Assembly: GCA_002104895.1 (NCBI GenBank)
Contig: MCFG01000390.1
Location: 1 to 62,890, forward strand
Origin: Anaeromyces robustus
Taxonomy: Eukaryota; Neocallimastigomycota; Neocallimastigomycetes; Neocallimastigales; Neocallimastigaceae
Direction: 5' to 3'
Length of the DNA stretch: 62,890 bases
The translations under genes were made by a program, and so were the position numbers. The notes beneath the pieces are model-generated. The model saw only the letters and a list, made by a program, of their open reading frames with translations, searched no databases and was not told the DNA's origin. This document shows, piece after piece, positions 8,843-62,140 of this stretch (the first letter of the stretch is position 1; the number at the start of each line of letters is the position of its first letter).

Positions 8843-9375
8843 TGTAACGTTTGCTTTTACACAATAGGTTTATAAACAATAAAGTAATTTAAAATAAATA
8901 TGTTTTGTTAGAAATAAGTTTTATTAATTTTAAAGTATAAATATTAATTATTAATTAGTTATTATAATATTTCAAATTACTTATAAACTAATTAATAAAA
9001 GCACGAATTTAAAAATATTTTATTAATGAATTTTACACCTATTTATATTTTTTTTTTTGAAAATAATAAAAATTTCTAAAAAGTTCTCGAAACTTAAATT
9101 TTTTTGATAAAAAAAGAATCTTATGGAAAAAGGATAAATTATAAAAAATTTTTATCCGAAAATTTCTGATTTTATTCTATTAATTTCTATGATAAAATAC
9201 AGAAATAAAATACAGAAATAAAATACAGAAATTAATAATAAATTTTTCTTAAAATAAAAAATTTTTTATAAATTGAGAATGAGTGTGAGTCGAACCCAAG
9301 GAGTTCAGCTCGATGGTCATAGTATTTAACCACTAAACCATGGTTACTAATTTACTGATTATGAGTTTCGTTACA
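8843..9375 (-). repeat. 3' LTR of element B
   Basis: It reads TG...CA on the minus strand, starting TGTAACGAAACTC. A tRNA-like segment follows (A-box TGGTTTAGTGGTTA, B-box GGTTCGACTC), then a three-fold TTTCTGTATTTTA repeat, a TATAAATA box and the R/U5 part. The same LTR recurs at 15535-16067 and, as a solo copy, at 56652-57181. Confidence 0.93.
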
Positions 9376-9410
9376 TGGTCCTCCTCTAGGATTCGGATAC
9401 CAGACGAATC
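9376..9410 (-). other. polypurine tract and hairpin of element B
   Basis: On the minus strand, a hairpin with stem GATTCG/CGAATC and loop TCTGGTATC is followed by a purine-rich tract (AGAGGAGGACCA) that abuts the 3' LTR. The tract is the expected primer for plus-strand DNA synthesis. The hairpin recurs in other families here. Confidence 0.8.
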
Positions 9411-14772: not shown

Positions 14773-14810
<38 letters not shown>

Positions 14811-15534
14811 GATATTTGGTTTGTTCACTTATATTTTATTATGGAATTTATTTAAATACTATTTGATATATTCACTTATATTGGTTATAGAATTTATTTG
14901 AATAGTATGGATTCATTCATTTATATTGATTATAGAATTTATTTTAATAATATTAGTTTATTCACTTATATTGATTATAGGATTTATTTGAATGATATTG
15001 ATTTATACACTTATTTTGATTATAAAATTTATTTAAATAATATTGATTTATTCATTTATATTGATTATAGGATTTATTTAAATAATATTGGTTTATTCAC
15101 TTATATTGATTATAAGATTTATTTAAATAATATTGATTTATTCATTAATATTGATTATAGGATTTATTTAAATAATATTGGTTTATTCGCTTATATTGAT
15201 TTTAGGATTTGGTCCGAACAAAGTATCAAAGATAGGAATTAAAAAAAATATTGGACCACAAACTGTTAGCAGACCAGTAGAAAAACTTTAAAAATAGCGG
15301 TAGATTATCCATAAATCCAAAAGGAGAGATATATCCTAAGAAATATTTGAAATAGTCCAAAAGAAAAGTGTTCTTAATACTAAAAGGGAATTTCCAAGTA
15401 GTTTCCTTAATTCTAGACTAGGCGGTAGCTTCCAAAAGGAGTTGTCCCAAAAGTTATTCGGAAAACTAGCAGTAGAGTTTGTTTATAAAGGTATTGTGTT
15501 TTTTTTTTTTTTTTTTTATAAAAGGTGCTTTTAT
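14005..15534 (-). other. 5' leader of element B
   Basis: A non-coding leader of 1.5 kb between the 5' LTR and gag. It contains a 45-bp minisatellite (about 14820-15215), poly(A) tracts on the minus strand (about 14779-14808 and 15497-15517) and a GC-richer block (about 14170-14550). That block is also found in the leader of D and in part in C. A small hairpin at 14236-14254 (GAGGT/ACCTC) is conserved in all three. Confidence 0.75.
14820..15215. repeat. 45-bp minisatellite in the leader of B
   Basis: About eight to nine copies of a 45-bp unit built on TATTGATTATAGGATTTATT. The unit length is a multiple of three, so the plus strand shows a fortuitous 15-residue repeat protein; I do not regard that as a gene. 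A degenerate version lies in the leader of D (about 31213-31430). Confidence 0.8.
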
Positions 15535-21450: not shown

Positions 21451-22877
21451 ATGGACGATAAACTAAAAATTGAGATAAGTGAAACAAATAGGGGAAAAGA
21501 ACAAATTATAATAAATAAAAACTATAAATATAATTTTTCAACTCTTAAAAAAGATAATACAAAAGTATATAGATGTACTGAATATAGAACGTCAAATAAA
21601 TGTAAATCTTTCATTATTTTAAATAATAATAAAGAAGTTTTAAAATATGAAAGTTCACATAATCATCTTGAGAAAGAATTTAGTACATCTATTTCAATCA
21701 CAAAACATAAAATTAAAAATGAAATAAGAAAGAGCTTAATTCCCTTAGATATGAGGCCTAAACGAATATATGATGAAGTTTCTCAAGAATTGGGATTTAT
21801 ATGTCCTGAATATAATTCAATTAAATCCCAATTATCAAGAAGTAGAAATAAACAATTATTTCCTGATATTAAAACTTTCGAAGAAATTCCCGATGAATCA
21901 GAATATTACAAAACAGCAAGAAATGAAAATTTTATGATTTTCAAAAATTCTAATTTAGTAATCTTTCAATCTCCATTCCAAGCAAAGCTATTCTCTAAAT
22001 ACGATAAAGATATATTTGCAGATGGAACATTTTATATTGCTCCTACAATTAGTTATCAGGTGTTTATTACCAGAACATATGTTACAGAATTAAATGGCTT
22101 TTATACTACTTCTTTTTCGGTATTAAAAGATAAAAAGCAATCTACTTATGAAATATTATTTGAGGAAATAAAAAAAATGTTATTAAATATAATAATAATA
22201 TTGAAATCACACCAAAAAATTTCCACTGTGATTTTGAAAAAGGTATATCAAATGCAGTAAAAAAAACTTTTCCGGAAATAAATATTAAATATTGCATTTG
22301 GCATTATAAAAGATCATTGGAAATTAACAAAAATGCATTATGTTATAAAGAAGTAGAAGATAATAATATTTTATATATTTATTATAAAGCTATTTCTAAC
22401 TTACCTTTCATAAACCCTGAATACATATTTAATATTTATAATAAAATTAAAAGTTCATGCGAAGCATGTGATCGTTTCCAATTTTTAAAATTCTTAGAAT
22501 ATTTTAAGAATACATACTTAAATAATTATGATATAAAATCCTGGAATTATTACAAAAGTATAGAACATATTACAAATAATGCGTCTGAATCTTTTAATAA
22601 TTACTTAAATAATTTATTTGCAAAAAAACCTTCTTTCTATAAATTAATATATACATTACAAAAAGAAGAATCTTTATCTTACAATGATTACGAAAGAAGA
22701 ATTGGAGGAATATGGAATAAAAAGAAAAGAATATTAGGAAGAACGGAGGAAATTGATGGTTTAATTAGACACTACGAAAAACTGGAATCCGAGCTAATTA
22801 AAAATGGCTATAATAAAAATGATATTGTTGAATTATGGTTTAATTGTTTATTTGATTTAAATAAATATAAATTATAA
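21451..22877 (+). pseudogene. FLYWCH-MULE transposase, one frameshift
   Basis: The first frame (269 aa) starts with a FLYWCH-type zinc finger (about residues 15-75; C42, C51, H70, H72), which binds DNA. The start of the MULE catalytic fold follows, with ADGTF carrying the first catalytic Asp (D191). The second frame (22317-22877, open from about 22185) continues with CDFEKGI (second Asp), the CIWH metal-like motif and NNASESFNNYL (third, Glu position), then a C-terminal end DIVELWFNCLFDLN. A one-base change in an A run near 22170 explains the switch. Without it the enzyme would be about 475 aa and look complete. Two degraded relatives lie at 7781-8165 and 56363-56548. Confidence 0.88.
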
Positions 22878-23760: not shown

Positions 23761-23889
23761 TGTAAGGATTTGGGGCGCATAATCATGCTGAATAATAATT
23801 ATTTAATAGATATAATGTGGCTTATATCTATAATCAATTCAAATCCTTTACAACGTCCTCTTCAAAGAATTCGTATTCCAGGCGAATTC
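23761..23889 (-). repeat. start of an LTR, polypurine tract and hairpin of element H
   Basis: On the minus strand, a hairpin with stem GAATTCG/CGAATTC and loop CCTGGAATA (23867-23889) is followed by the purine-rich GAAGAGGACGT and then TGTAAAGGATTTGAATTG, which looks like an LTR start at 23852. The LTR continues to the MULE insertion point. It shares a GCCACA-loop hairpin with the L5 LTRs. Confidence 0.6.
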
Positions 23890-37261: not shown

Positions 37262-37629
37262 AGAAAAAACTTAGATTTTAAAAATGAATCTTAAACACTT
37301 TATTAATTATTAATATCACTATAAAAAATTTAAATATTATTTACTTTATTAATATCAAATTTATTCTATTACTATAGTCAAAATATATTTATACTTAGTT
37401 TAAAATTTAGTTAGTTTTATTACTATTAAAATATTATAACCTATTAATATCAATATTCATGTAATTCTATTATTAATATCATGTAATTTTATTATAAATA
37501 TCATGTAATTCTTTATTATTATTATCAATATTTTTATCATTATACAAACTCGAAATTTTACACAAAATTATTTATAATTATTAATAAAAAATTTTCTGGT
37601 ATAGTTTAGCCTAATTTTGAGATTCGTCT
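37262..37629 (+). other. 3' UTR of element D, first part
   Basis: AT-rich, with repeated TTAATATCA-type words like those in the 3' UTRs of A and B. It ends with the left half of the pre-PPT hairpin (GATTCG, 37621-37626), which the L2 solo LTR splits. Confidence 0.6.
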
Positions 37630-38953
37630 TGTTAAATGTGGGTAGATTTTGTTTAATAATGGTCAGGTCAAGATGTTTAATTAATAACAAAATAACTAAT
37701 TAAACAAATATATAATTGATAGGCAAATTTTTATAACACAACAAAATAATTAATTAAAAGAACACTTTTTAAAATAATTAAGTTTTATAATAATATTTTT
37801 TATTAATAATTAATTAAGAAAAGTTTAAATAATAATTAGATTATTAAGTCATTAATTCTAAGTTAGTTAATAATCTTACAAAGATTATAAGGAATTGTAA
37901 TTTCAATCCTATTTATACTTTTTCTAAATTTAATAATTATTAATACATTTAATTATTATAATCTATTGATAATATATTTATACATGTATAATTTTAAATA
38001 AAATATATGAATAAAATAATATTGATAAAAATCTAACTATATAAAACTAATATAAAACTATATAAACTATTAATAAATTTAATGATAAGAATTATAATCT
38101 AAGATTTAGATTTATAACTATTTTAATTATTTAACTAATTAACTATTTAATTATTTAATTGTTTAGTATACTATTTAATTATTTATCTATATATTAATTA
38201 TTTTTATCTTTGGATTTTTATAATCTTTTCTGTATAATTAATTAAAGATAAAATGGGATATTTTAATTATTTAAGATCTTAAGTAAATTTTAAATTTTTT
38301 GAGATTTTTTGGAATTCTAAGAATTTCTGTAAATTAATATAATAATCAACTATTCTAATTTTTATAAAAATAATTAACAATTATTATAATATATGATATA
38401 AATTATTATTATTATTCTAATTAATATTTTATAAATTATTTGAAGGCGTTTTCTGTATATCTGAATAATTATTATTATTATAAATTATAATATAATTATT
38501 GAAATAAAAAGATTTTATCTATATAAAATTTTATAATTATTTATTTATGGATCCTTATAAATATTTAATTATATTTTTATATTGTATAAACCTTTAAAGT
38601 CCAATATCTCGCCAACCAGTGGTCCAAATGGGCTGAAATTCAGATATGTTGTAGCTCTTGAGCAGAGCTTCTCAATGAGCATAATATCAAAGCGAAGCGG
38701 AGGAAATCTTCAATATTTGGTGAGTTATCGTTATTTTTCTTCGTATTATTTTTACTATAATCTTAAGGGTTAAATTAAGATGATTAATATTTACTTAATT
38801 TGTCCAAACCCTTTACAATATCAATTTAAATACTTTTTAATACTTATTTATTTTATTGAAAATCGAATTTTAAGTGATTTAGTCAATAACGAATTTTAAA
38901 TGTAATTGATCTATTAGTGAATTTCAATTTTAAATCTACTAGTATTCGCGACA
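37630..38953 (-). repeat. solo LTR, family L2
   Basis: 1324 bp with the TSD CGTCT (37625-37629 and 38954-38958). Nearly the same sequence as 29013-30332. It inserted into the loop of the D hairpin, just before the polypurine tract. Confidence 0.92.
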
Positions 38954-38984
38954 CGTCTGGTATCCGAATCCTAGAGGAGGACCA

Positions 38985-41725: not shown

Positions 41726-41758
41726 AGTCGTCTGGAATCCGACTTTGGAGGAAGACCG
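41726..41758 (+). other. hairpin and polypurine tract of element E
   Basis: Stem AGTCG/CGACT (41726-41730 and 41740-41744) with loop TCTGGAATC, then TTTGGAGGAAGACCG abutting a new LTR at 41759. It has the same layout as in A, B and D but a different stem sequence. Confidence 0.75.
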
Positions 41759-47618: not shown

Positions 47619-48006
47619 TGTAACGAATCATGAAAATGAGTAACCTGTCTTAGTGGTTAGTAACTAAGACTATGGTTCGAACCTCTCGAGTTCGAAACCT
47701 CTCAATTCCAAAATATCATATTTTTATTATTTTTATTTTTACCATAAATTTTACCAAACAAAATTATTCTGATTGGTTAAATTTTGGTCACTAAAAAAAT
47801 TTTTAAAATTTTTTTAAAATTTTTAGTATAAATACGAGTGAATTTTTCTCAAAAAATTTTATAAAAATTCGAGTTATTATTAATAAATAAAAATAATTAT
47901 TTAACACTAACTTGTAAAGTAGTTTTGTGTTCGATAATAAATTTTTATTTTACATTAAGAAGAAAGTATATTTTTTTATTGTTGTCGAACACTTCAGTTC
48001 TTGACA
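47619..48006 (+). repeat. 5' LTR of element A
   Basis: 388 bp, TGTAACGAATCATG...GTTCTTGACA. It has an A-box (47646-47659, TGTCTTAGTGGTTA) and two B-box-like words (GGTTCGAACC at 47674, AGTTCGAAACC at 47689), a TATA box (47827-47834), and an inferred RNA start at 47871. Confidence 0.95.
47827..47881 (+). promoter_or_regulatory. TATA box and inferred RNA start of element A
   Basis: TATAAATA at 47827-47834. The word GAGTTATTATT at 47871-47881, preceded by TTC, is the inferred first 11 nt of the transcript because it is complementary to the primer site. B and D show the same TATA-to-word distance (43-44 nt). Confidence 0.65.
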
Positions 48007-48016
48007 ATAATAACTC
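48006..48016 (+). other. self-priming-type primer binding site of element A
   Basis: AATAATAACTC, made of the last LTR base and the first 10 leader bases, is the exact complement of GAGTTATTATT at 47871-47881. The geometry is that of Tf1-type self-priming. No tRNA primer match such as TGGTAGCGCC is seen. Confidence 0.75.
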
Positions 48017-49023: not shown

Positions 49024-52000
49024 ATGGAAGAAGAGATACTAAATAATGCTACTCTAAAGGACGGATTTGCCGGGGACCGTCGATTCTTAAAGGGATTCCT
49101 AGCCAAGGTTGAACTGGTCTTCTTACTGTATCCGGATCGCTACCACGACCACGAAACAAAAATTATTTATCTCATCTCTAGGCTATATGGGAACGCGATG
49201 AATTGGGCCGCCTCCCTGATAGAGAATGATGACCCCTGTTTGCATGACTATCAGGCCTTTGTTGCTAAACTTAAGGCATATTATGGAAATTGTGACGCAA
49301 CATATGTAGCAAACCAGATGTTGCGCACAATTAAACAACAAAAACTCGGGGGTATTCGTGGGTATATACAAGAATTCAACAAATATTCGGACGAGTCGAA
49401 CTGGAACGAAGAGGCCAAGATGGACGCTTTCATTGCAGGACTCCACAACCAAGTTGCAATGAAAATAATTGAAATGTTCCCAGGGCCCCAGAACCTCACT
49501 TCCCTCCAAATTGTGGCGTCCAGGATTGACTCCAGATTATCGTCCAGAAATATGTTCTACAGCAATAGGAATTTTAGTAATGGTTCCTATAGTAGAAAAC
49601 AAAATAATTCAAATAGGCCTCCAAATCAAAATCAAACTAGCCAGAAAAAATTTGGACCCTTAAGCAAAGAAGAAAAAGAAAGAAGAAGAAAGGAAAATCT
49701 CTGCCTATACTGCGGCTCACCCAACCATAAGTTAAAGGATTGCAATAAGAAAAATAAAAATAAAGAAAGTATATCTATGATGTCAATCCCAACTATGGCG
49801 TCAAATTCTAATGAGTCATCTTCAGAACGATTCACGAAGGAATTTAAACTCTCTTTTGAACTTTCACCCAAGATTCTCATTGATTCTGGTTCTAAGCTTA
49901 ATCTTATCGATGTTGACTACTGTAACGACCATAATCTACCTTATCATGACGACGGTAATTTACCTAAAATTATTGGTATAGGTGGTAGTCAATCTATTTT
50001 TGGTATAACTCCGCCTCTTAATCTCCGTTATAAGGACCACCTTTGTCGAACCCAATTCTATGTTACTGATTTACCTGTTTATCCTTGTATACTAGGTCTC
50101 GATTGGCTCAGGGAACACAACCCACACATCGATTTCTCTTCAAACACTTTATCCTTTGTTTCTAATCATTGCCTTACCTATTGTGTTACGTTACCTACTA
50201 ACGTTCCTGAATTTCCTGAAGAGTCTTCTGCTTTCCCTGCCATTGAAAATAATTCTCGTCGAAAAAAGTCTCGTTATAACAATATTCATAATAATTCTCG
50301 TAATAACAATTTCAGTAGGAACCATTCCGTAAATAATTCAAACTCTGATAACTCTCCTAACTACACTTCTTTTCTTGTCATTACCGATGAATCCAAAGGA
50401 AAATCAAAAAAGGATTCTGTTTCTGATAACTCCCTAGTTGTTAATTCGTTTTCTGTCTCTCTTGGTCCTTCAACTAATCCAAATTACAATTCAGTTCTAA
50501 ATCAAAATTCTGCCTATTCTAATTCCACTTCTACTTTTAATTCTAGTTCTAATGCTACCTCTGTTCCTAATTCTCGTCCTACGTCTTATTCCCTTATTAG
50601 TTCTAATTCTAACTCTATTTCTACTTCCAGTTCTACTTTGAAATCTGACTCTAATTCCATTACAAACTCTATTTCTAATTTTATTTCAGATCATGATTTA
50701 AAGCTCAAACTCCCTGCTGAATTAATTGAATTTCTAGATGTTTTTAGTGAAGCTTCCGCCAACAAGCTCCCTCCTCATCGTCCGTATGATTGCCAGATAA
50801 ATCTCATAGTTAATGGTAAACTTCATTATGGACCCATTTATCCATTAACTAATAAAGAAACAAAAGCTCTTGAAAAATATATAAAAGAAAATCTCAAGAA
50901 AGGGTTTATTCGTAAATATAAATCCCCAGCTGGAGCTTCTATATTTTTTGTCTTGAAAAAGAATGGTGAACTTAGATTAGTGGTTGATTATCGTCCACTA
51001 AATGAAATTACCATTAGAGATTCTTACCCTCTCCCATTAATTCAAGATATGCTGGAGCATTTGGGTAAAGCTAAAATCTTCTCAAAACTGGATCTCCGCT
51101 CAGCGTACAACTTGATTCGCATAAAAGAGGGAGATGAATATAAGACTGCCTTTACCTGTTCCTTTGGACATTTTGAATACACCGTCATGCCTTTTGGATT
51201 GAAAAACGCTCCTGCCGTTTTTCAACATTTTATTAACGATGTACTCGAAGATGTTATTGGAAAGTTCGCCTATGCCTACATCGACGACATTATAATCTTC
51301 TCTAAAGATTATAATTCTCATGTTAAACATGTTAAGGAAATTCTTATTCGCCTTAGAAAAGCTGGACTATTCGCCAAACTAGAAAAGTGCGAATTTTTCG
51401 TTCCATATATCGATTTCCTTGGTCACCGCATATCAGCCGAAGGTATTTTCATGGATCCAAAAAAGGTTGATTCTATTTTAAATTGGCCTACCCCCACTTG
51501 TGTCAAAGAAGTTCAATCGTTTCTCGGTCTCGCTAACTACTATAGACGCTTCATTCCAGGCTTTGCCAAATTAGCTCATCCGCTTCACCTTCTCCTTAGA
51601 AAAAATACAAAATTTTCTTGGTCTCCTGAAGCTCAGTCTGCATTTGATTCCTTAAAATTGAAATTTACTTCTTCTCCTGTACTTTCTTATCCTAACCGAG
51701 AACTTCCTTTTATTGTCGAAACCGATTCTAGTAATTTTGCTATCGGTGCAGTATTATCTCAGAAATCACCCAGTGATAATGCTATCCACCCTGTCGCTTT
51801 CTTCTCAAGATCTCTTACTGGTCCAGAACGAAACTACCCCATTTATGATAAGGAACTTTTGGCTATCGTCTCTGCTTTGGAAAACTGGCGTCATCTCCTC
51901 AAAGGCTCTGACATTCCTTTCTCTATTTATTCTGATCATCGAAATCTTCTTTTCCAGAAAAAACCCGAAAAGATGACTCAAAGACTCGTTCGTTGGTCCT

Positions 52001-53604
52001 TGTTTCTCTCTGAGTTTAATTTTAAAATTTTATATCGTTCTGGTTCTTCCAATGGTAAACCCGATGCTCTCTCACGCCGCCCTGATTATGCTAACTCTAC
52101 CGATTCTTCAGATATTCCTTTCACTGTTCTACATCCAGAAAATTTCTGTGCCCTTATTTGCTCAGCTTCTTCTCTTAATGATGATATTCTTTCAGGCTAC
52201 AAATCTGATTCCTTTTACCATGATGTTTGTACCTACCTCGAAAATAAAAAGCCTCCAATTCCTCATCACCAAATTGACAAATTTTCTTTAAGTAATGGTT
52301 TTCTTCTATTTGATAACCGTATTTATGTTCCTCCAAACTGTCGCAATCATATCTTGAAAATCTGCCATGATTCACCCACTGCAGGCCATTATGGCATTAG
52401 AAAGACTACCTCTCTCATCGTCCGCGACTTTTGGTGGCCATCTCTTTCCTCTGATTGTAAAAATTATATTAGGTCTTGCGATATTTGCTGTCGCTCAAAA
52501 TCTCCCCGTCACAAACCTTATGGCTTTCTTAACCCTCTTAATATTAGTGAACGTCCTTGGTCTTCCATTTCCATGGATTTTATTACTGATCTCCCTGACT
52601 CTGATGGTTTCTCCTGTATTTTAGTTTTTGTTGATAGACTAACCAAGATGTTCCATCTTGTACCTTTCCATAGCTTACCTTCTGCTGTCGAAACTGCCTC
52701 TGCTTTTATTGATTACATCTTTAAACTCCACGGTTTGCCTAATGAAATTATCTCCGACAGAGGTGCTCAGTTCACATCTAAATTTTGGAAAGCCGTTTGC
52801 CAGTCCCTGAACATCGAACTTAAATTTTCGTCTCCTTACCACCATCAGTCCAATGGCCAGACGGAGAGAGTGAACTCCGTTGTAGAACAATATTTAAGAT
52901 GTTTTTCCAATTATAAAGGTTCTGATTGGAAACAATACTTAAGTCTAGCAGAATTTAGCTATAACAATGCTGTTCAAGAGTCTACTGGTTTTTCCCCTTT
53001 CTTTCTAAACTATGGTTTTCACCCGAAACACTCACCTTTAATCCCTGAACAAACTAATGTACCACGCGCTGTTGAATTCACTAAAGACTTTCAAGACTTA
53101 ATGAAGAAGTTAAAAGAAAATTTGAAAACTGCTATTGAAATTCAGAAGAAACAAGCCGACAAGTACAGAAGTAAGCCACCCAAGTTCAAAAAGGGTGATA
53201 AAGTTTGGCTTGATAGTTCTTTAATAATACATAAGGGAAATAAAAAGTTTAAACCAAGGAAACTAGGCCCATACAAAATCTTAGAAAAGGTAACCGAAGT
53301 TTCTTACAAATTGGATCTACCTAAATCCATTAGAATTCACCCAATCGTACATGTTTCAAGCTTGGAACCATATTATGAAGACAGTTTCGACCGAATCAAA
53401 CCAGCTCCACCTCCTATTATTGTTAATGATGAAGAGGAATATGAGGTAGAAGAAATTTTAGACAGAAGAAAATATTATGGCAAGATACAATATTTAATTA
53501 AGTGGAAAGGTTATCCTCTTTCTGAAGCATCTTGGGAACCAAAAGAAAATTTAAACTGTGATGAAATTTTAAGAAATTTTAACAAAAAATTTAACAAAAA
53601 ATAA
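49024..53604 (+). CDS. gag-pol: element A Gag-Pol polyprotein
   Basis: One frame of 1526 codons. Gag core is about 10-180; CCHC knuckle is C227, C230, H235, C240. Protease has DSG at 287-289 and ILG near 356. A Ser/Asn-rich linker covers about 400-555. RT is about 560-850, with D690 and YIDD at 752-755. RNase H is about 880-1010 (D901, E944, D971). Integrase has the zinc part (H1115, H1122, C1152, C1155) and a DD35E core (D1185, D1245, E1281). GPY is near 1415 and the chromodomain is 1471-1519 (W1494, W1504). It makes the particle, copies the RNA to DNA and inserts it. A single gag-pol frame without a shift is known in the Tf1/sushi group, which also self-primes. Start: MEEE is the Gag start of all relatives here. 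Confidence 0.95.
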   Translation: MEEEILNNATLKDGFAGDRRFLKGFLAKVELVFLLYPDRYHDHETKIIYLISRLYGNAMNWAASLIENDDPCLHDYQAFVAKLKAYYGNCDATYVANQMLRTIKQQKLGGIRGYIQEFNKYSDESNWNEEAKMDAFIAGLHNQVAMKIIEMFPGPQNLTSLQIVASRIDSRLSSRNMFYSNRNFSNGSYSRKQNNSNRPPNQNQTSQKKFGPLSKEEKERRRKENLCLYCGSPNHKLKDCNKKNKNKESISMMSIPTMASNSNESSSERFTKEFKLSFELSPKILIDSGSKLNLIDVDYCNDHNLPYHDDGNLPKIIGIGGSQSIFGITPPLNLRYKDHLCRTQFYVTDLPVYPCILGLDWLREHNPHIDFSSNTLSFVSNHCLTYCVTLPTNVPEFPEESSAFPAIENNSRRKKSRYNNIHNNSRNNNFSRNHSVNNSNSDNSPNYTSFLVITDESKGKSKKDSVSDNSLVVNSFSVSLGPSTNPNYNSVLNQNSAYSNSTSTFNSSSNATSVPNSRPTSYSLISSNSNSISTSSSTLKSDSNSITNSISNFISDHDLKLKLPAELIEFLDVFSEASANKLPPHRPYDCQINLIVNGKLHYGPIYPLTNKETKALEKYIKENLKKGFIRKYKSPAGASIFFVLKKNGELRLVVDYRPLNEITIRDSYPLPLIQDMLEHLGKAKIFSKLDLRSAYNLIRIKEGDEYKTAFTCSFGHFEYTVMPFGLKNAPAVFQHFINDVLEDVIGKFAYAYIDDIIIFSKDYNSHVKHVKEILIRLRKAGLFAKLEKCEFFVPYIDFLGHRISAEGIFMDPKKVDSILNWPTPTCVKEVQSFLGLANYYRRFIPGFAKLAHPLHLLLRKNTKFSWSPEAQSAFDSLKLKFTSSPVLSYPNRELPFIVETDSSNFAIGAVLSQKSPSDNAIHPVAFFSRSLTGPERNYPIYDKELLAIVSALENWRHLLKGSDIPFSIYSDHRNLLFQKKPEKMTQRLVRWSLFLSEFNFKILYRSGSSNGKPDALSRRPDYANSTDSSDIPFTVLHPENFCALICSASSLNDDILSGYKSDSFYHDVCTYLENKKPPIPHHQIDKFSLSNGFLLFDNRIYVPPNCRNHILKICHDSPTAGHYGIRKTTSLIVRDFWWPSLSSDCKNYIRSCDICCRSKSPRHKPYGFLNPLNISERPWSSISMDFITDLPDSDGFSCILVFVDRLTKMFHLVPFHSLPSAVETASAFIDYIFKLHGLPNEIISDRGAQFTSKFWKAVCQSLNIELKFSSPYHHQSNGQTERVNSVVEQYLRCFSNYKGSDWKQYLSLAEFSYNNAVQESTGFSPFFLNYGFHPKHSPLIPEQTNVPRAVEFTKDFQDLMKKLKENLKTAIEIQKKQADKYRSKPPKFKKGDKVWLDSSLIIHKGNKKFKPRKLGPYKILEKVTEVSYKLDLPKSIRIHPIVHVSSLEPYYEDSFDRIKPAPPPIIVNDEEEYEVEEILDRRKYYGKIQYLIKWKGYPLSEASWEPKENLNCDEILRNFNKKFNKK

Positions 53605-53753: not shown

Positions 53754-53942
53754 TAATAAATAAATTTTTATTTTATATCTTATATAGTCAATTTTATTAA
53801 TGTAATTAAAAAATAATAATCCATGTAATTTTTTTTAAAATGTAATAATTAAAAGAAAATTTCACTCTTAGAATAGTTTACATTTTATAAATTTTAGTTT
53901 AACTCGAGATTCGTCTGGTATCCGAATCCTGGAGGAGGACCA
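53605..53942 (+). other. 3' UTR, hairpin and polypurine tract of element A
   Basis: Repeated ATATTTTATTAATATC-like words, a poly(A) tract of about 32 (53711-53742), then a hairpin (GATTCG 53908-53913, loop TCTGGTATC, CGAATC 53923-53928) and the tract CTGGAGGAGGACCA (53929-53942) touching the 3' LTR. Confidence 0.8.
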
Positions 53943-54330
53943 TGTAACGAATCATGAAAATGAGTAACCTGTCTTAGTGGTTAGTAACTAAGACTATGGT
54001 TCGAACCTCTCGAGTTCGAAACCTCTCAATTCCAAAATATCATATTTTTATTATTTTTATTTTTACCATAAATTTTACCAAACAAAATTATTCTGATTGG
54101 TTAAATTTTGGTCACTAAAAAAATTTTTAAAATTTTTTTAAAATTTTTAGTATAAATACGAGTGAATTTTTCTCAAAAAATTTTATAAAAATTCGAGTTA
54201 TTATTAATAAATAAAAATAATTATTTAACACTAACTTGTAAAGTAGTTTTGTGTTCGATAATAAATTTTTATTTTACATTAAGAAGAAAGTATATTTTTT
54301 TATTGTTGTCGAACACTTCAGTTCTTGACA
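53943..54330 (+). repeat. 3' LTR of element A
   Basis: 388 bp; no difference from the 5' LTR was seen by eye. Confidence 0.95.
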
Positions 54331-61886: not shown

Positions 61887-62140
61887 TCGCTCCCCCAAAG
61901 AAAATCGAATTCCAGGCGATTGTCAATAACCAAATAATATGAATTAAAGTTTGGAATTAATAATTTTAAATAATTTATAGTTGAAAATAATATATATGAA
62001 TATATTATAAGTTGAATAATAAATATATAATATAAAATAGTTGATATTAAATTTTTAAAGATTTTTAATTGAATGATATATTTTGAATATATTGCAATAT
62101 ATGGAAATTTAAATTGAAAAAAAAAATTTTTAAAATTTAT

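What the first reader, a model, noticed from the sequence alone, without database searches (positions are those of the whole stretch)
53908..53942. Conserved CTGGWAT hairpin before the polypurine tract in five element families
A hairpin with a 9-nt loop (TCTGGTATC, TCTGGAATC, CCTGGAATT or CCTGGAATA) closed by TCG/CGA lies next to the polypurine tract in A (53908-53928), B (9390-9410), D (split by an insertion, 37621 and 38970), E (41726-41744), J (61903-61921) and H (23867-23889). Outer stem pairs differ but keep pairing: GAT/ATC, AG/CT, AA/TT, GAAT/ATTC. That is covariation across distant lineages. It might position RNase H at the tract, guide 3' processing or be bound by integrase. I know of no named motif like it.
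Basis: partly seen in the sequence, partly recalled or inferred. Interest (0 to 1): 0.88.

Follow-up and report, generated by a model that had tools for sequence, protein, structure and literature searches.

The report
Conserved hairpin beside retrotransposon polypurine tract
Several distantly related jumping genes in an unnamed chytrid-like fungus carry the same small hairpin at a nearly fixed distance from the site where copying of their second DNA strand should begin, which suggests a built-in positioning signal for the copying enzyme.

Summary
The core TCG-YCTGGWATH-CGA sits at the stated places and occurs 253 times in the 70 Mb host genome (0 for the reversed pattern). In 58 of 58 distinct contexts read, a purine tract follows; TGT comes 16-18 nt after CGA in 55, and in one of the other three that TGT belongs to an inserted LTR. 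I find eight families by flanks, plus a ninth with a shorter loop at the same spacing.

Two stem pairs outside the fixed TCG/CGA differ between families yet are Watson-Crick in 16 of 16 cells. Two gene-less mini-elements keep the hairpin with self-primer and tract, so it is probably a cis-acting replication signal.

Best explanation (inferred): reverse transcriptase halts or bends at the hairpin foot, 13-16 nt before the LTR, setting RNase H on the tract/U3 junction. Ty3 RT's two active sites are reported about 13 bp apart.

Against: naked RNA folding supports the hairpin weakly; one host genome was seen; three Azolla-associated chromoviruses and 20 same-genome Copia loci lack it.

Tract-side signals are known (U-box, fission-yeast TCTT, Sirevirus inverted repeat), but none like this was found. 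New variant of a known kind.

The parts
53908..53928 (+). Hairpin of element A: GATTCG-TCTGGTATC-CGAATC (core 53911-53925)
53929..53942 (+). Purine tract of A with the three bases before the LTR (CTGGAGGAGGACCA)
53943..54330 (+). 3' LTR of A, TGTAAC...TTGACA; TSD GTAAT
   Evidence: and sequence read directly
47619..48006 (+). 5' LTR of A
48007..48016 (+). Self-primer binding site ATAATAACTC, complementary to GAGTTATTAT inside the LTR
47871..47880 (+). GAGTTATTAT in the 5' LTR, presumed 5' end of the RNA and self-primer
   Evidence: LTR position 253-262
49024..53604 (+). Gag-Pol frame of A: Ty3 capsid, RT, RNase H, integrase, Tf2-1 SH3, chromodomain
9390..9410 (-). Hairpin of element B, same lineage as A
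8843..9375 (-). 3' LTR of B (533 bp, TSD GTTAT)
37621..37629 (+). Left part of D's hairpin, up to the insertion
38957..38970 (+). Right part of D's hairpin; the insert 37630-38953 is flanked by the direct repeat CGTCT (right copy 38954-38958)
41726..41744 (+). Hairpin of element E (AGTCG-TCTGGAATC-CGACT), LTR begins 41759
61903..61921 (-). Hairpin of element J (AATCG-CCTGGAATT-CGATT)
23867..23889 (-). Hairpin of element H (GAATTCG-CCTGGAATA-CGAATTC)

Best explanation
It is a cis-acting signal of Tf1-like, self-primed Ty3 chromoviruses that marks the plus-strand origin. Shown: a fixed core with covarying outer stem, a spacing of 16-18 nt to the LTR in most contexts, and presence in two gene-less mini-elements. 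Inferred: while copying the RNA into minus-strand DNA, reverse transcriptase slows or distorts at the hairpin foot just after copying the purine tract. The RNase H site, about 13 bp behind the polymerase site, then lies on the tract/U3 junction and frees the plus-strand primer at the right base. The conserved loop may be gripped by RT or nucleocapsid, which would stabilise a weak stem.
For: Spacing CGA to TGT 16-18 nt in 55 of 58 distinct contexts although the tract sequence differs between families; every context has an uninterrupted purine run of 7-11 nt. Covariation: two outer pairs, three pair types each, 16 of 16 cells paired, 7 double-change cells and covariation score reached by 0 of 500 shuffles; arm swapping between families p = 1e-4. 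Gene-less F4 and F8 keep the hairpin together with self-primer and tract. 0 of 20 Copia loci in the same genome hold the core (fetched, checked), so it follows the Ty3 machinery. Foot-to-LTR distance 13-16 nt. Literature: preliminary work put Ty3 RT's active sites about 13 bp apart, and local distortions moved RNase H cleavage 10-12 bp downstream (PMC5371799 section 13); in HIV-1 the unzipped part is centred about 12 bp upstream of the junction (PMC3185511 passage).
Against: Minimum-energy folds of 44-52 nt pieces contain the hairpin only in A and H; only H clearly beats its shuffles. Hairpin energies are -0.4 to -5.2 kcal/mol. Three inner pairs never vary, and two of the five measures (pairs with a double change, further pair types) are matched by about 40% of shuffles. 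The shorter-loop family N has no pairing beyond TCG/CGA. Three Azolla-associated chromoviruses, about as close in integrase sequence, lack it. The plus-strand start was not measured. No other fungal genome was available.
Confidence: 0.5

Rival explanations
1. It is an RNA hairpin bound by Gag/nucleocapsid for packaging, dimerisation or end-to-end contact; closeness to the tract is incidental.
For: The loop is strongly conserved, as for a protein-bound loop; gene-less mini-elements must also keep packaging signals; weak stems are often stabilised by protein (general knowledge).
Against: Near-fixed distance to the LTR across lineages with different tracts is not expected of a packaging signal. 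Loop or arm pairing with the tract or LTR start is no better than controls.
Confidence: 0.22
2. It is a double-stranded DNA site for a host or element protein, an inverted repeat with a specific centre, acting on transcription or chromatin.
For: TCG..CGA arms are a plausible dimer site; loop letters are conserved as sequence.
Against: Compensatory changes among unlike bases at pairs 4 and 5 fit pairing better than base-specific binding. 0 of 20 Copia loci have it. A transcription site need not keep 16-18 nt to the LTR.
Confidence: 0.13
3. Only the linear sequence matters (an enlarged U-box/tract motif); the inverted repeat is incidental.
For: 12 of 15 core positions are invariant; folding energy is weak.
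Against: 16 of 16 Watson-Crick cells at variable positions, mean 6.75 under swapping of 3' flanks, 8 of 40320 permutations as high; with five families only, 10 of 10 cells and 2 of 120 permutations.
Confidence: 0.1
4. It is part of a larger stem enclosing the tract, with the other arm in the LTR, as in Sireviruses.
For: Lineage A has GATTCGT complementary to ACGAATC at LTR position 5-11.
Against: Over eight families the complementarity is no better than between swapped families (p 0.43).
Confidence: 0.03

Closest known systems
U-box / TCTT box next to the polypurine tract (Ty1, retroviruses; Tf1, Tf2, Tj1, Tcry1, Tosmo elements)
   Same: Conserved non-coding signal just upstream of the tract in self-primed chromoviruses, proposed to help define the plus-strand primer (PMC10085805, passages). 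Several families here also have TCTT or CTTT between hairpin and tract.
   Different: The known boxes are short T-rich stretches; no hairpin is mentioned in the passages. Here there is a 15-nt core with covarying stem. [quoted passage not shown]
Sirevirus / Pseudoviridae inverted repeat around the PPT/3'LTR junction
   Same: Precisely positioned inverted repeat whose left arm borders the tract (PMC2829016, passages; PMC3601003, passages, which calls for a search for such hairpins elsewhere).
   Different: There the right arm lies inside the LTR and the tract is in the loop; here both arms lie upstream of the tract and the loop is conserved. The enclosing form was tested here and not supported.
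Tf1/sushi self-primed chromoviruses
   Same: Chromodomain Ty3 order, PBS complementary to an LTR stretch, 5-bp TSD.
   Different: The hairpin is not described for this group in the passages I read.
Ty3 bipartite primer binding site with a 3' part in U3
   Same: Cis signal near the 3' end acting in reverse transcription (PMC5371799 and PMC11381356, passages).
   Different: Ty3 uses a tRNA; A, B, F4 and F8 carry a self-primer.
TRIM / Helenus mini-elements
   Same: F4 and F8 have two LTRs, PBS, tract and no gene; PMC10886601, abstract and passages.
   Different: Fungal Helenus PBSs match a tRNA anticodon loop or, in several families, a tRNA 3' end; F4 and F8 have a self-primer.

Membership tests
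Tf1/sushi self-primed chromovirus (Ty3/Metaviridae) | RT-RNase H-integrase with chromodomain | tested here: met
   A; F5 integrase part with chromodomain; the other families were not scanned for the chromodomain
Tf1/sushi self-primed chromovirus (Ty3/Metaviridae) | PBS complementary to a stretch inside the LTR (self-primer) | tested here: met
   A 10 nt; B, F4, F8 10 nt or more; RNA 5' end itself not mapped; E, H, J, F5, F6 and N not tested
Tf1/sushi self-primed chromovirus (Ty3/Metaviridae) | 5-bp target site duplication | tested here: met
   A GTAAT, B GTTAT and F4 GAAAT; others not tested
U-box / TCTT tract-flanking box | T-rich stretch immediately upstream of the tract | tested here: inconclusive
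   CTT(T), TCTT or a T run in F1, F2, F3, F4, F6, F8 and N, not in F5 and F7 (read by eye)
Pseudoviridae PPT-enclosing inverted repeat | Left arm upstream of the tract pairs with a right arm inside the LTR | tested here: not met
   p 0.43 for eight families; lineage A alone has 7 nt
Ty3-type tRNA bipartite PBS | tRNA-complementary PBS after the 5' LTR | tested here: not met
   PBS of A, B, F4, F8 is complementary to the LTR; no comparison with host tRNAs was run, and the 3' tRNA part was not tested
TRIM (F4, F8 only) | Two LTRs, PBS and tract, no coding capacity | tested here: met
   Internal 484 and 626 nt, longest open stretch 49 and 58 codons; one copy of each, the second F8 copy (L019) could not be delimited because the contig ends
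Rfam families | Match above gathering score | tested here: not met
   0 matches in the window

The most novel reading that the evidence does not exclude
A sequence-specific hairpin, maintained over deep chromovirus lineages, works as a ruler: it stalls or grips reverse transcriptase one active-site spacing away from the plus-strand origin, so that the element's RNA structure, not the purine tract alone, dictates where the second strand begins.
Probability: 0.33. Interest if true: 0.72.

Novelty: new variant of a known kind. Interest (0 to 1): 0.55.

Why it matters
How reverse transcriptase picks the exact plus-strand origin is usually explained by features of the purine-tract hybrid itself. 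A conserved hairpin at a near-fixed distance of about one polymerase-to-RNase H spacing would add an RNA landmark to that model, testable in vitro with purified RT. It also gives annotators a sharp 3' end signature for these elements, including gene-less ones.

Tried and rejected
Non-TCG/CGA closures of CTGGWAT near tracts: 50 hits against 10 control hits; at the hits of the 30 loci fetched, 0 had a stem of 4 bp or more round a 9-nt loop; the other 20 hits were not read. Other loops closed by TCG/CGA at the right spacing: TCGC class 17 hits (16 of family N, 1 variant of H) against 2 control; TCGT class 1 hit against 53 control. TCGA and TCGG classes were not searched.

Loop-tract pairing: best duplex no better than shuffled (fractions 0.11-0.92). 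PPT-enclosing stem: not supported. Relatives of the integrase in IMG/VR: none by protein, one weak match of 72 residues by alignment, with no hairpin and tract seen; motif plus tract in IMG/VR: 0 for spacings 17 and 18 (spacing 16 not run). Rfam at relaxed threshold on L010, L014, L081, L062: no tRNA. A covariance model was not built: the pattern search already had no background hits, and a hit list would have been filled by canonical copies.

The first tree had element B in a wrong frame and was redone. In the second, long branches meet, E's row is only 40% filled, and the backbone between lineages is unresolved, so the number of independent stem changes is not fixed. Rows: 137 raw occurrences in stretches held (overlapping stretches counted twice) gave 58 distinct 130-nt contexts; none was lost at a stretch end. 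All 82 hits but only about 43 of the other 171 were in those stretches. One of the 58 (L071) has its tract cut by an inserted LTR that begins like D's insert, so its TGT at 14 nt is not its own. In the eight-family test one row per family was used and N was left out. F2 and F6 have identical flanks at the two tested pairs, as do F4 and F8, so independent families are fewer than eight.

Full report
WHAT WAS CHECKED. The window is 23% GC and part of a 70.17 Mb, 769-contig genome. Genes there are split into exons (chaperonin matches come in pieces). A CCT-theta exon is closest, among named species, to chytrid fungi (72-74% identity to Spizellomyces, Powellomyces and Cladochytrium; two unnamed proteins 94% and 88%). 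So the host is an unnamed chytrid-like fungus (inference). The window is full of LTR retrotransposons; element A has a 1526-codon frame with Ty3 capsid, RT, RNase H, integrase and chromodomain.

THE MOTIF. Every site in the finding is real. The common core is TCG-YCTGGWATH-CGA. In the host genome TCGNCTGGNATNCGA occurs 253 times and 0 times reversed. The stretches I fetched cover all 82 hits that are not of the TAT type and about 43 of the 171 TAT hits. They hold 137 raw occurrences and 58 distinct 130-nt contexts. In all 58 an uninterrupted purine run of 7-11 nt and then TGT follow. CGA-to-TGT distances are 17 nt in 32, 18 in 19, 16 in 4, and 14, 15 and 19 once each. The 14-nt case (L071) is an element whose tract is cut by an inserted LTR. 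Of 109 other CTGGWAT sites in the fetched loci, 0 have a stem of 4 bp or more round a 9-nt loop.

AN UNBIASED LOOK. Integrase search of the genome gave 92 matches. Of 20 matches whose 3' side was fetched, 11 have the full hairpin, 2 a copy damaged in the 3' arm (L068 a one-base loss, L069 two changes), 4 a shorter-loop form TCG-CAGGAGCT-CGA with TGT 16 nt later (family N, L072-L075), and 3 none on the element's strand (L066, L079, L080). L066 runs into a stretch with the motif on the other strand; L079's stretch probably ended short of the expected place, and the next 601 bases of that contig hold none either (L174). Sites with other loops closed by TCG/CGA at this spacing are family N and one H-like variant in the TCGC class (17 hits, 2 control hits), and one isolated hit in the TCGT class (53 control hits).

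LINEAGES AND COVARIATION. By flanks there are eight families (F1=H, F2=J, F3=E, F4, F5, F6, F7=A/B/D, F8) plus N. Integrases of A and H are 39% identical, A and F5 52%, A and N 47%. In the tree A/B/D form one group, H/J/F6 another; F5, E, N and these two join at an unresolved backbone. F4 and F8 have no protein and are not in the tree. Twelve of 15 core positions are invariant in the eight families. The TCG/CGA pairs never vary and say nothing about pairing. The next two pairs take three types each (T-A, A-T, G-C) and are Watson-Crick in 16 of 16 cells; 8 of 40320 swaps of 3' flanks do as well, and for five families with proteins 2 of 120. The count tool gives 100% paired cells, 7 double-change cells and a covariation score of 0.53, each reached by 0 of 500 shuffles, while two cruder measures (pairs with a double change, further pair types) are reached by 209 and 205 of 500; slid structures score 0.00-0.14. 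Swapping the 3' arm between families gives p = 1e-4. Pair 6 forms in 3 of 8 families only.

AGAINST A STABLE NAKED HAIRPIN. Folding 44-52 nt pieces puts the hairpin in the minimum-energy structure of A and H but not B, E or J; z-scores are -0.59, 0.63, 0.62, 0.40 for A, B, E, J and -3.25 for H. Taken alone the hairpins are worth -0.4 to -5.2 kcal/mol. If it forms, protein or the copying enzyme probably helps. Family N shows no pairing beyond TCG/CGA.

CIS-ACTING. A, B, F4 and F8 have a 10-nt PBS complementary to a stretch in their own LTR, the Tf1 type of self-primer; A, B and F4 have 5-bp target duplications. F4 (L010: LTR 571, internal 484 nt) and F8 (L014: LTR about 596, internal 626 nt) have no open stretch longer than 49 and 58 codons between LTR and hairpin, yet keep the hairpin and tract. 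An element moved by proteins of others needs to keep little besides replication signals, so the hairpin is probably one (inference).

MECHANISM. The distance from hairpin foot to LTR is 13-16 nt (F5 13; A, H and E 14; F4 and F8 15; J, F6 and N 16; derived). A review reports preliminary work putting Ty3 RT's polymerase and RNase H sites about 13 bp apart, and distortions that redirect cleavage 10-12 bp downstream (PMC5371799, section 13 read). For HIV-1 a distorted part of the tract is centred about 12 bp upstream of the junction (PMC3185511, passages). If minus-strand synthesis halts at the foot, RNase H would lie on or beside the tract/U3 junction. This stall-and-cut reading is inference: no pausing, cleavage or plus-strand start was measured. 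Integrase is unlikely to read the hairpin at the cDNA ends because it is not at an end.

CONTROLS AND LIMITS. None of 20 Copia loci of the same genome (331 nt each, several of one family), nor the Copia-bearing stretch L172, holds the core. Chromoviruses on contigs binned with an Azolla-associated cyanobacterium (L081-L083; integrase 44-45% identical to A) have a purine tract and TGTCA but no such hairpin; that these contigs are eukaryotic, and the link to Azolla (recalled from the cyanobacterium's name), are my inference. No other fungal DNA could be searched here.

LITERATURE. Searches listed no paper that describes this hairpin by title or abstract start, nor did the passages I read. Nearest are the TCTT box upstream of the tract in fission-yeast elements (PMC10085805, passages) and the inverted repeat enclosing the tract in Sireviruses and almost half of the classic Copia elements (PMC2829016, passages; PMC3601003, passages, which calls for a search for such hairpins elsewhere). 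The enclosing form was tested on the eight families and is no better than swapped pairs (p 0.43). The library holds open-licence papers only; the Tf1 plus-strand primer paper could not be read.

VERDICT. Real, strongly position-bound, pairing supported by covariation at two pairs, function inferred. A new variant of the known class of tract-flanking plus-strand signals.

Noticed in passing
53943-54330 and 8843-9375 (LTRs of A and B); L010, L014: The U3 parts carry tRNA-like A-box and B-box stretches (such as TAGTGGTTAG and GGTTCGAACC) by eye, also in elements with long coding frames. ARAGORN on the window and Rfam on the window and on L010, L014 and L062 find no tRNA. Resembles Helenus mini-elements (PMC10886601).
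   Followed up: partly
L081-L083, just inside the LTR: Azolla-associated chromoviruses have a stretch near the LTR start that looks like the reverse complement of a tRNA T-arm region (by eye); Rfam finds no tRNA in L081.
   Followed up: partly
L010 (contig C30) and L014 (contig C59) of the host genome: Two families of gene-less, self-primed mini-elements (TRIM-like) with the hairpin.
   Followed up: partly
L179, L182, L183: Copia elements of the same genome have a tract-enclosing inverted repeat (for instance AAACTTT/AAAGTTT). Over 13 distinct loci it is only marginal: 123 of 2000 permutations as high.
   Followed up: partly
37630-38953: Insert inside D's hairpin, flanked by the 5-bp repeat CGTCT, whose minus strand begins like J's LTR; the same LTR end is inserted in the tract of L071.
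   Followed up: partly
21451-22260: FLYWCH zinc-finger frame, perhaps from a DNA transposon (guess).
   Followed up: no
14773-15255: Eight overlapping copies of a repeat with 45-nt period.
   Followed up: no
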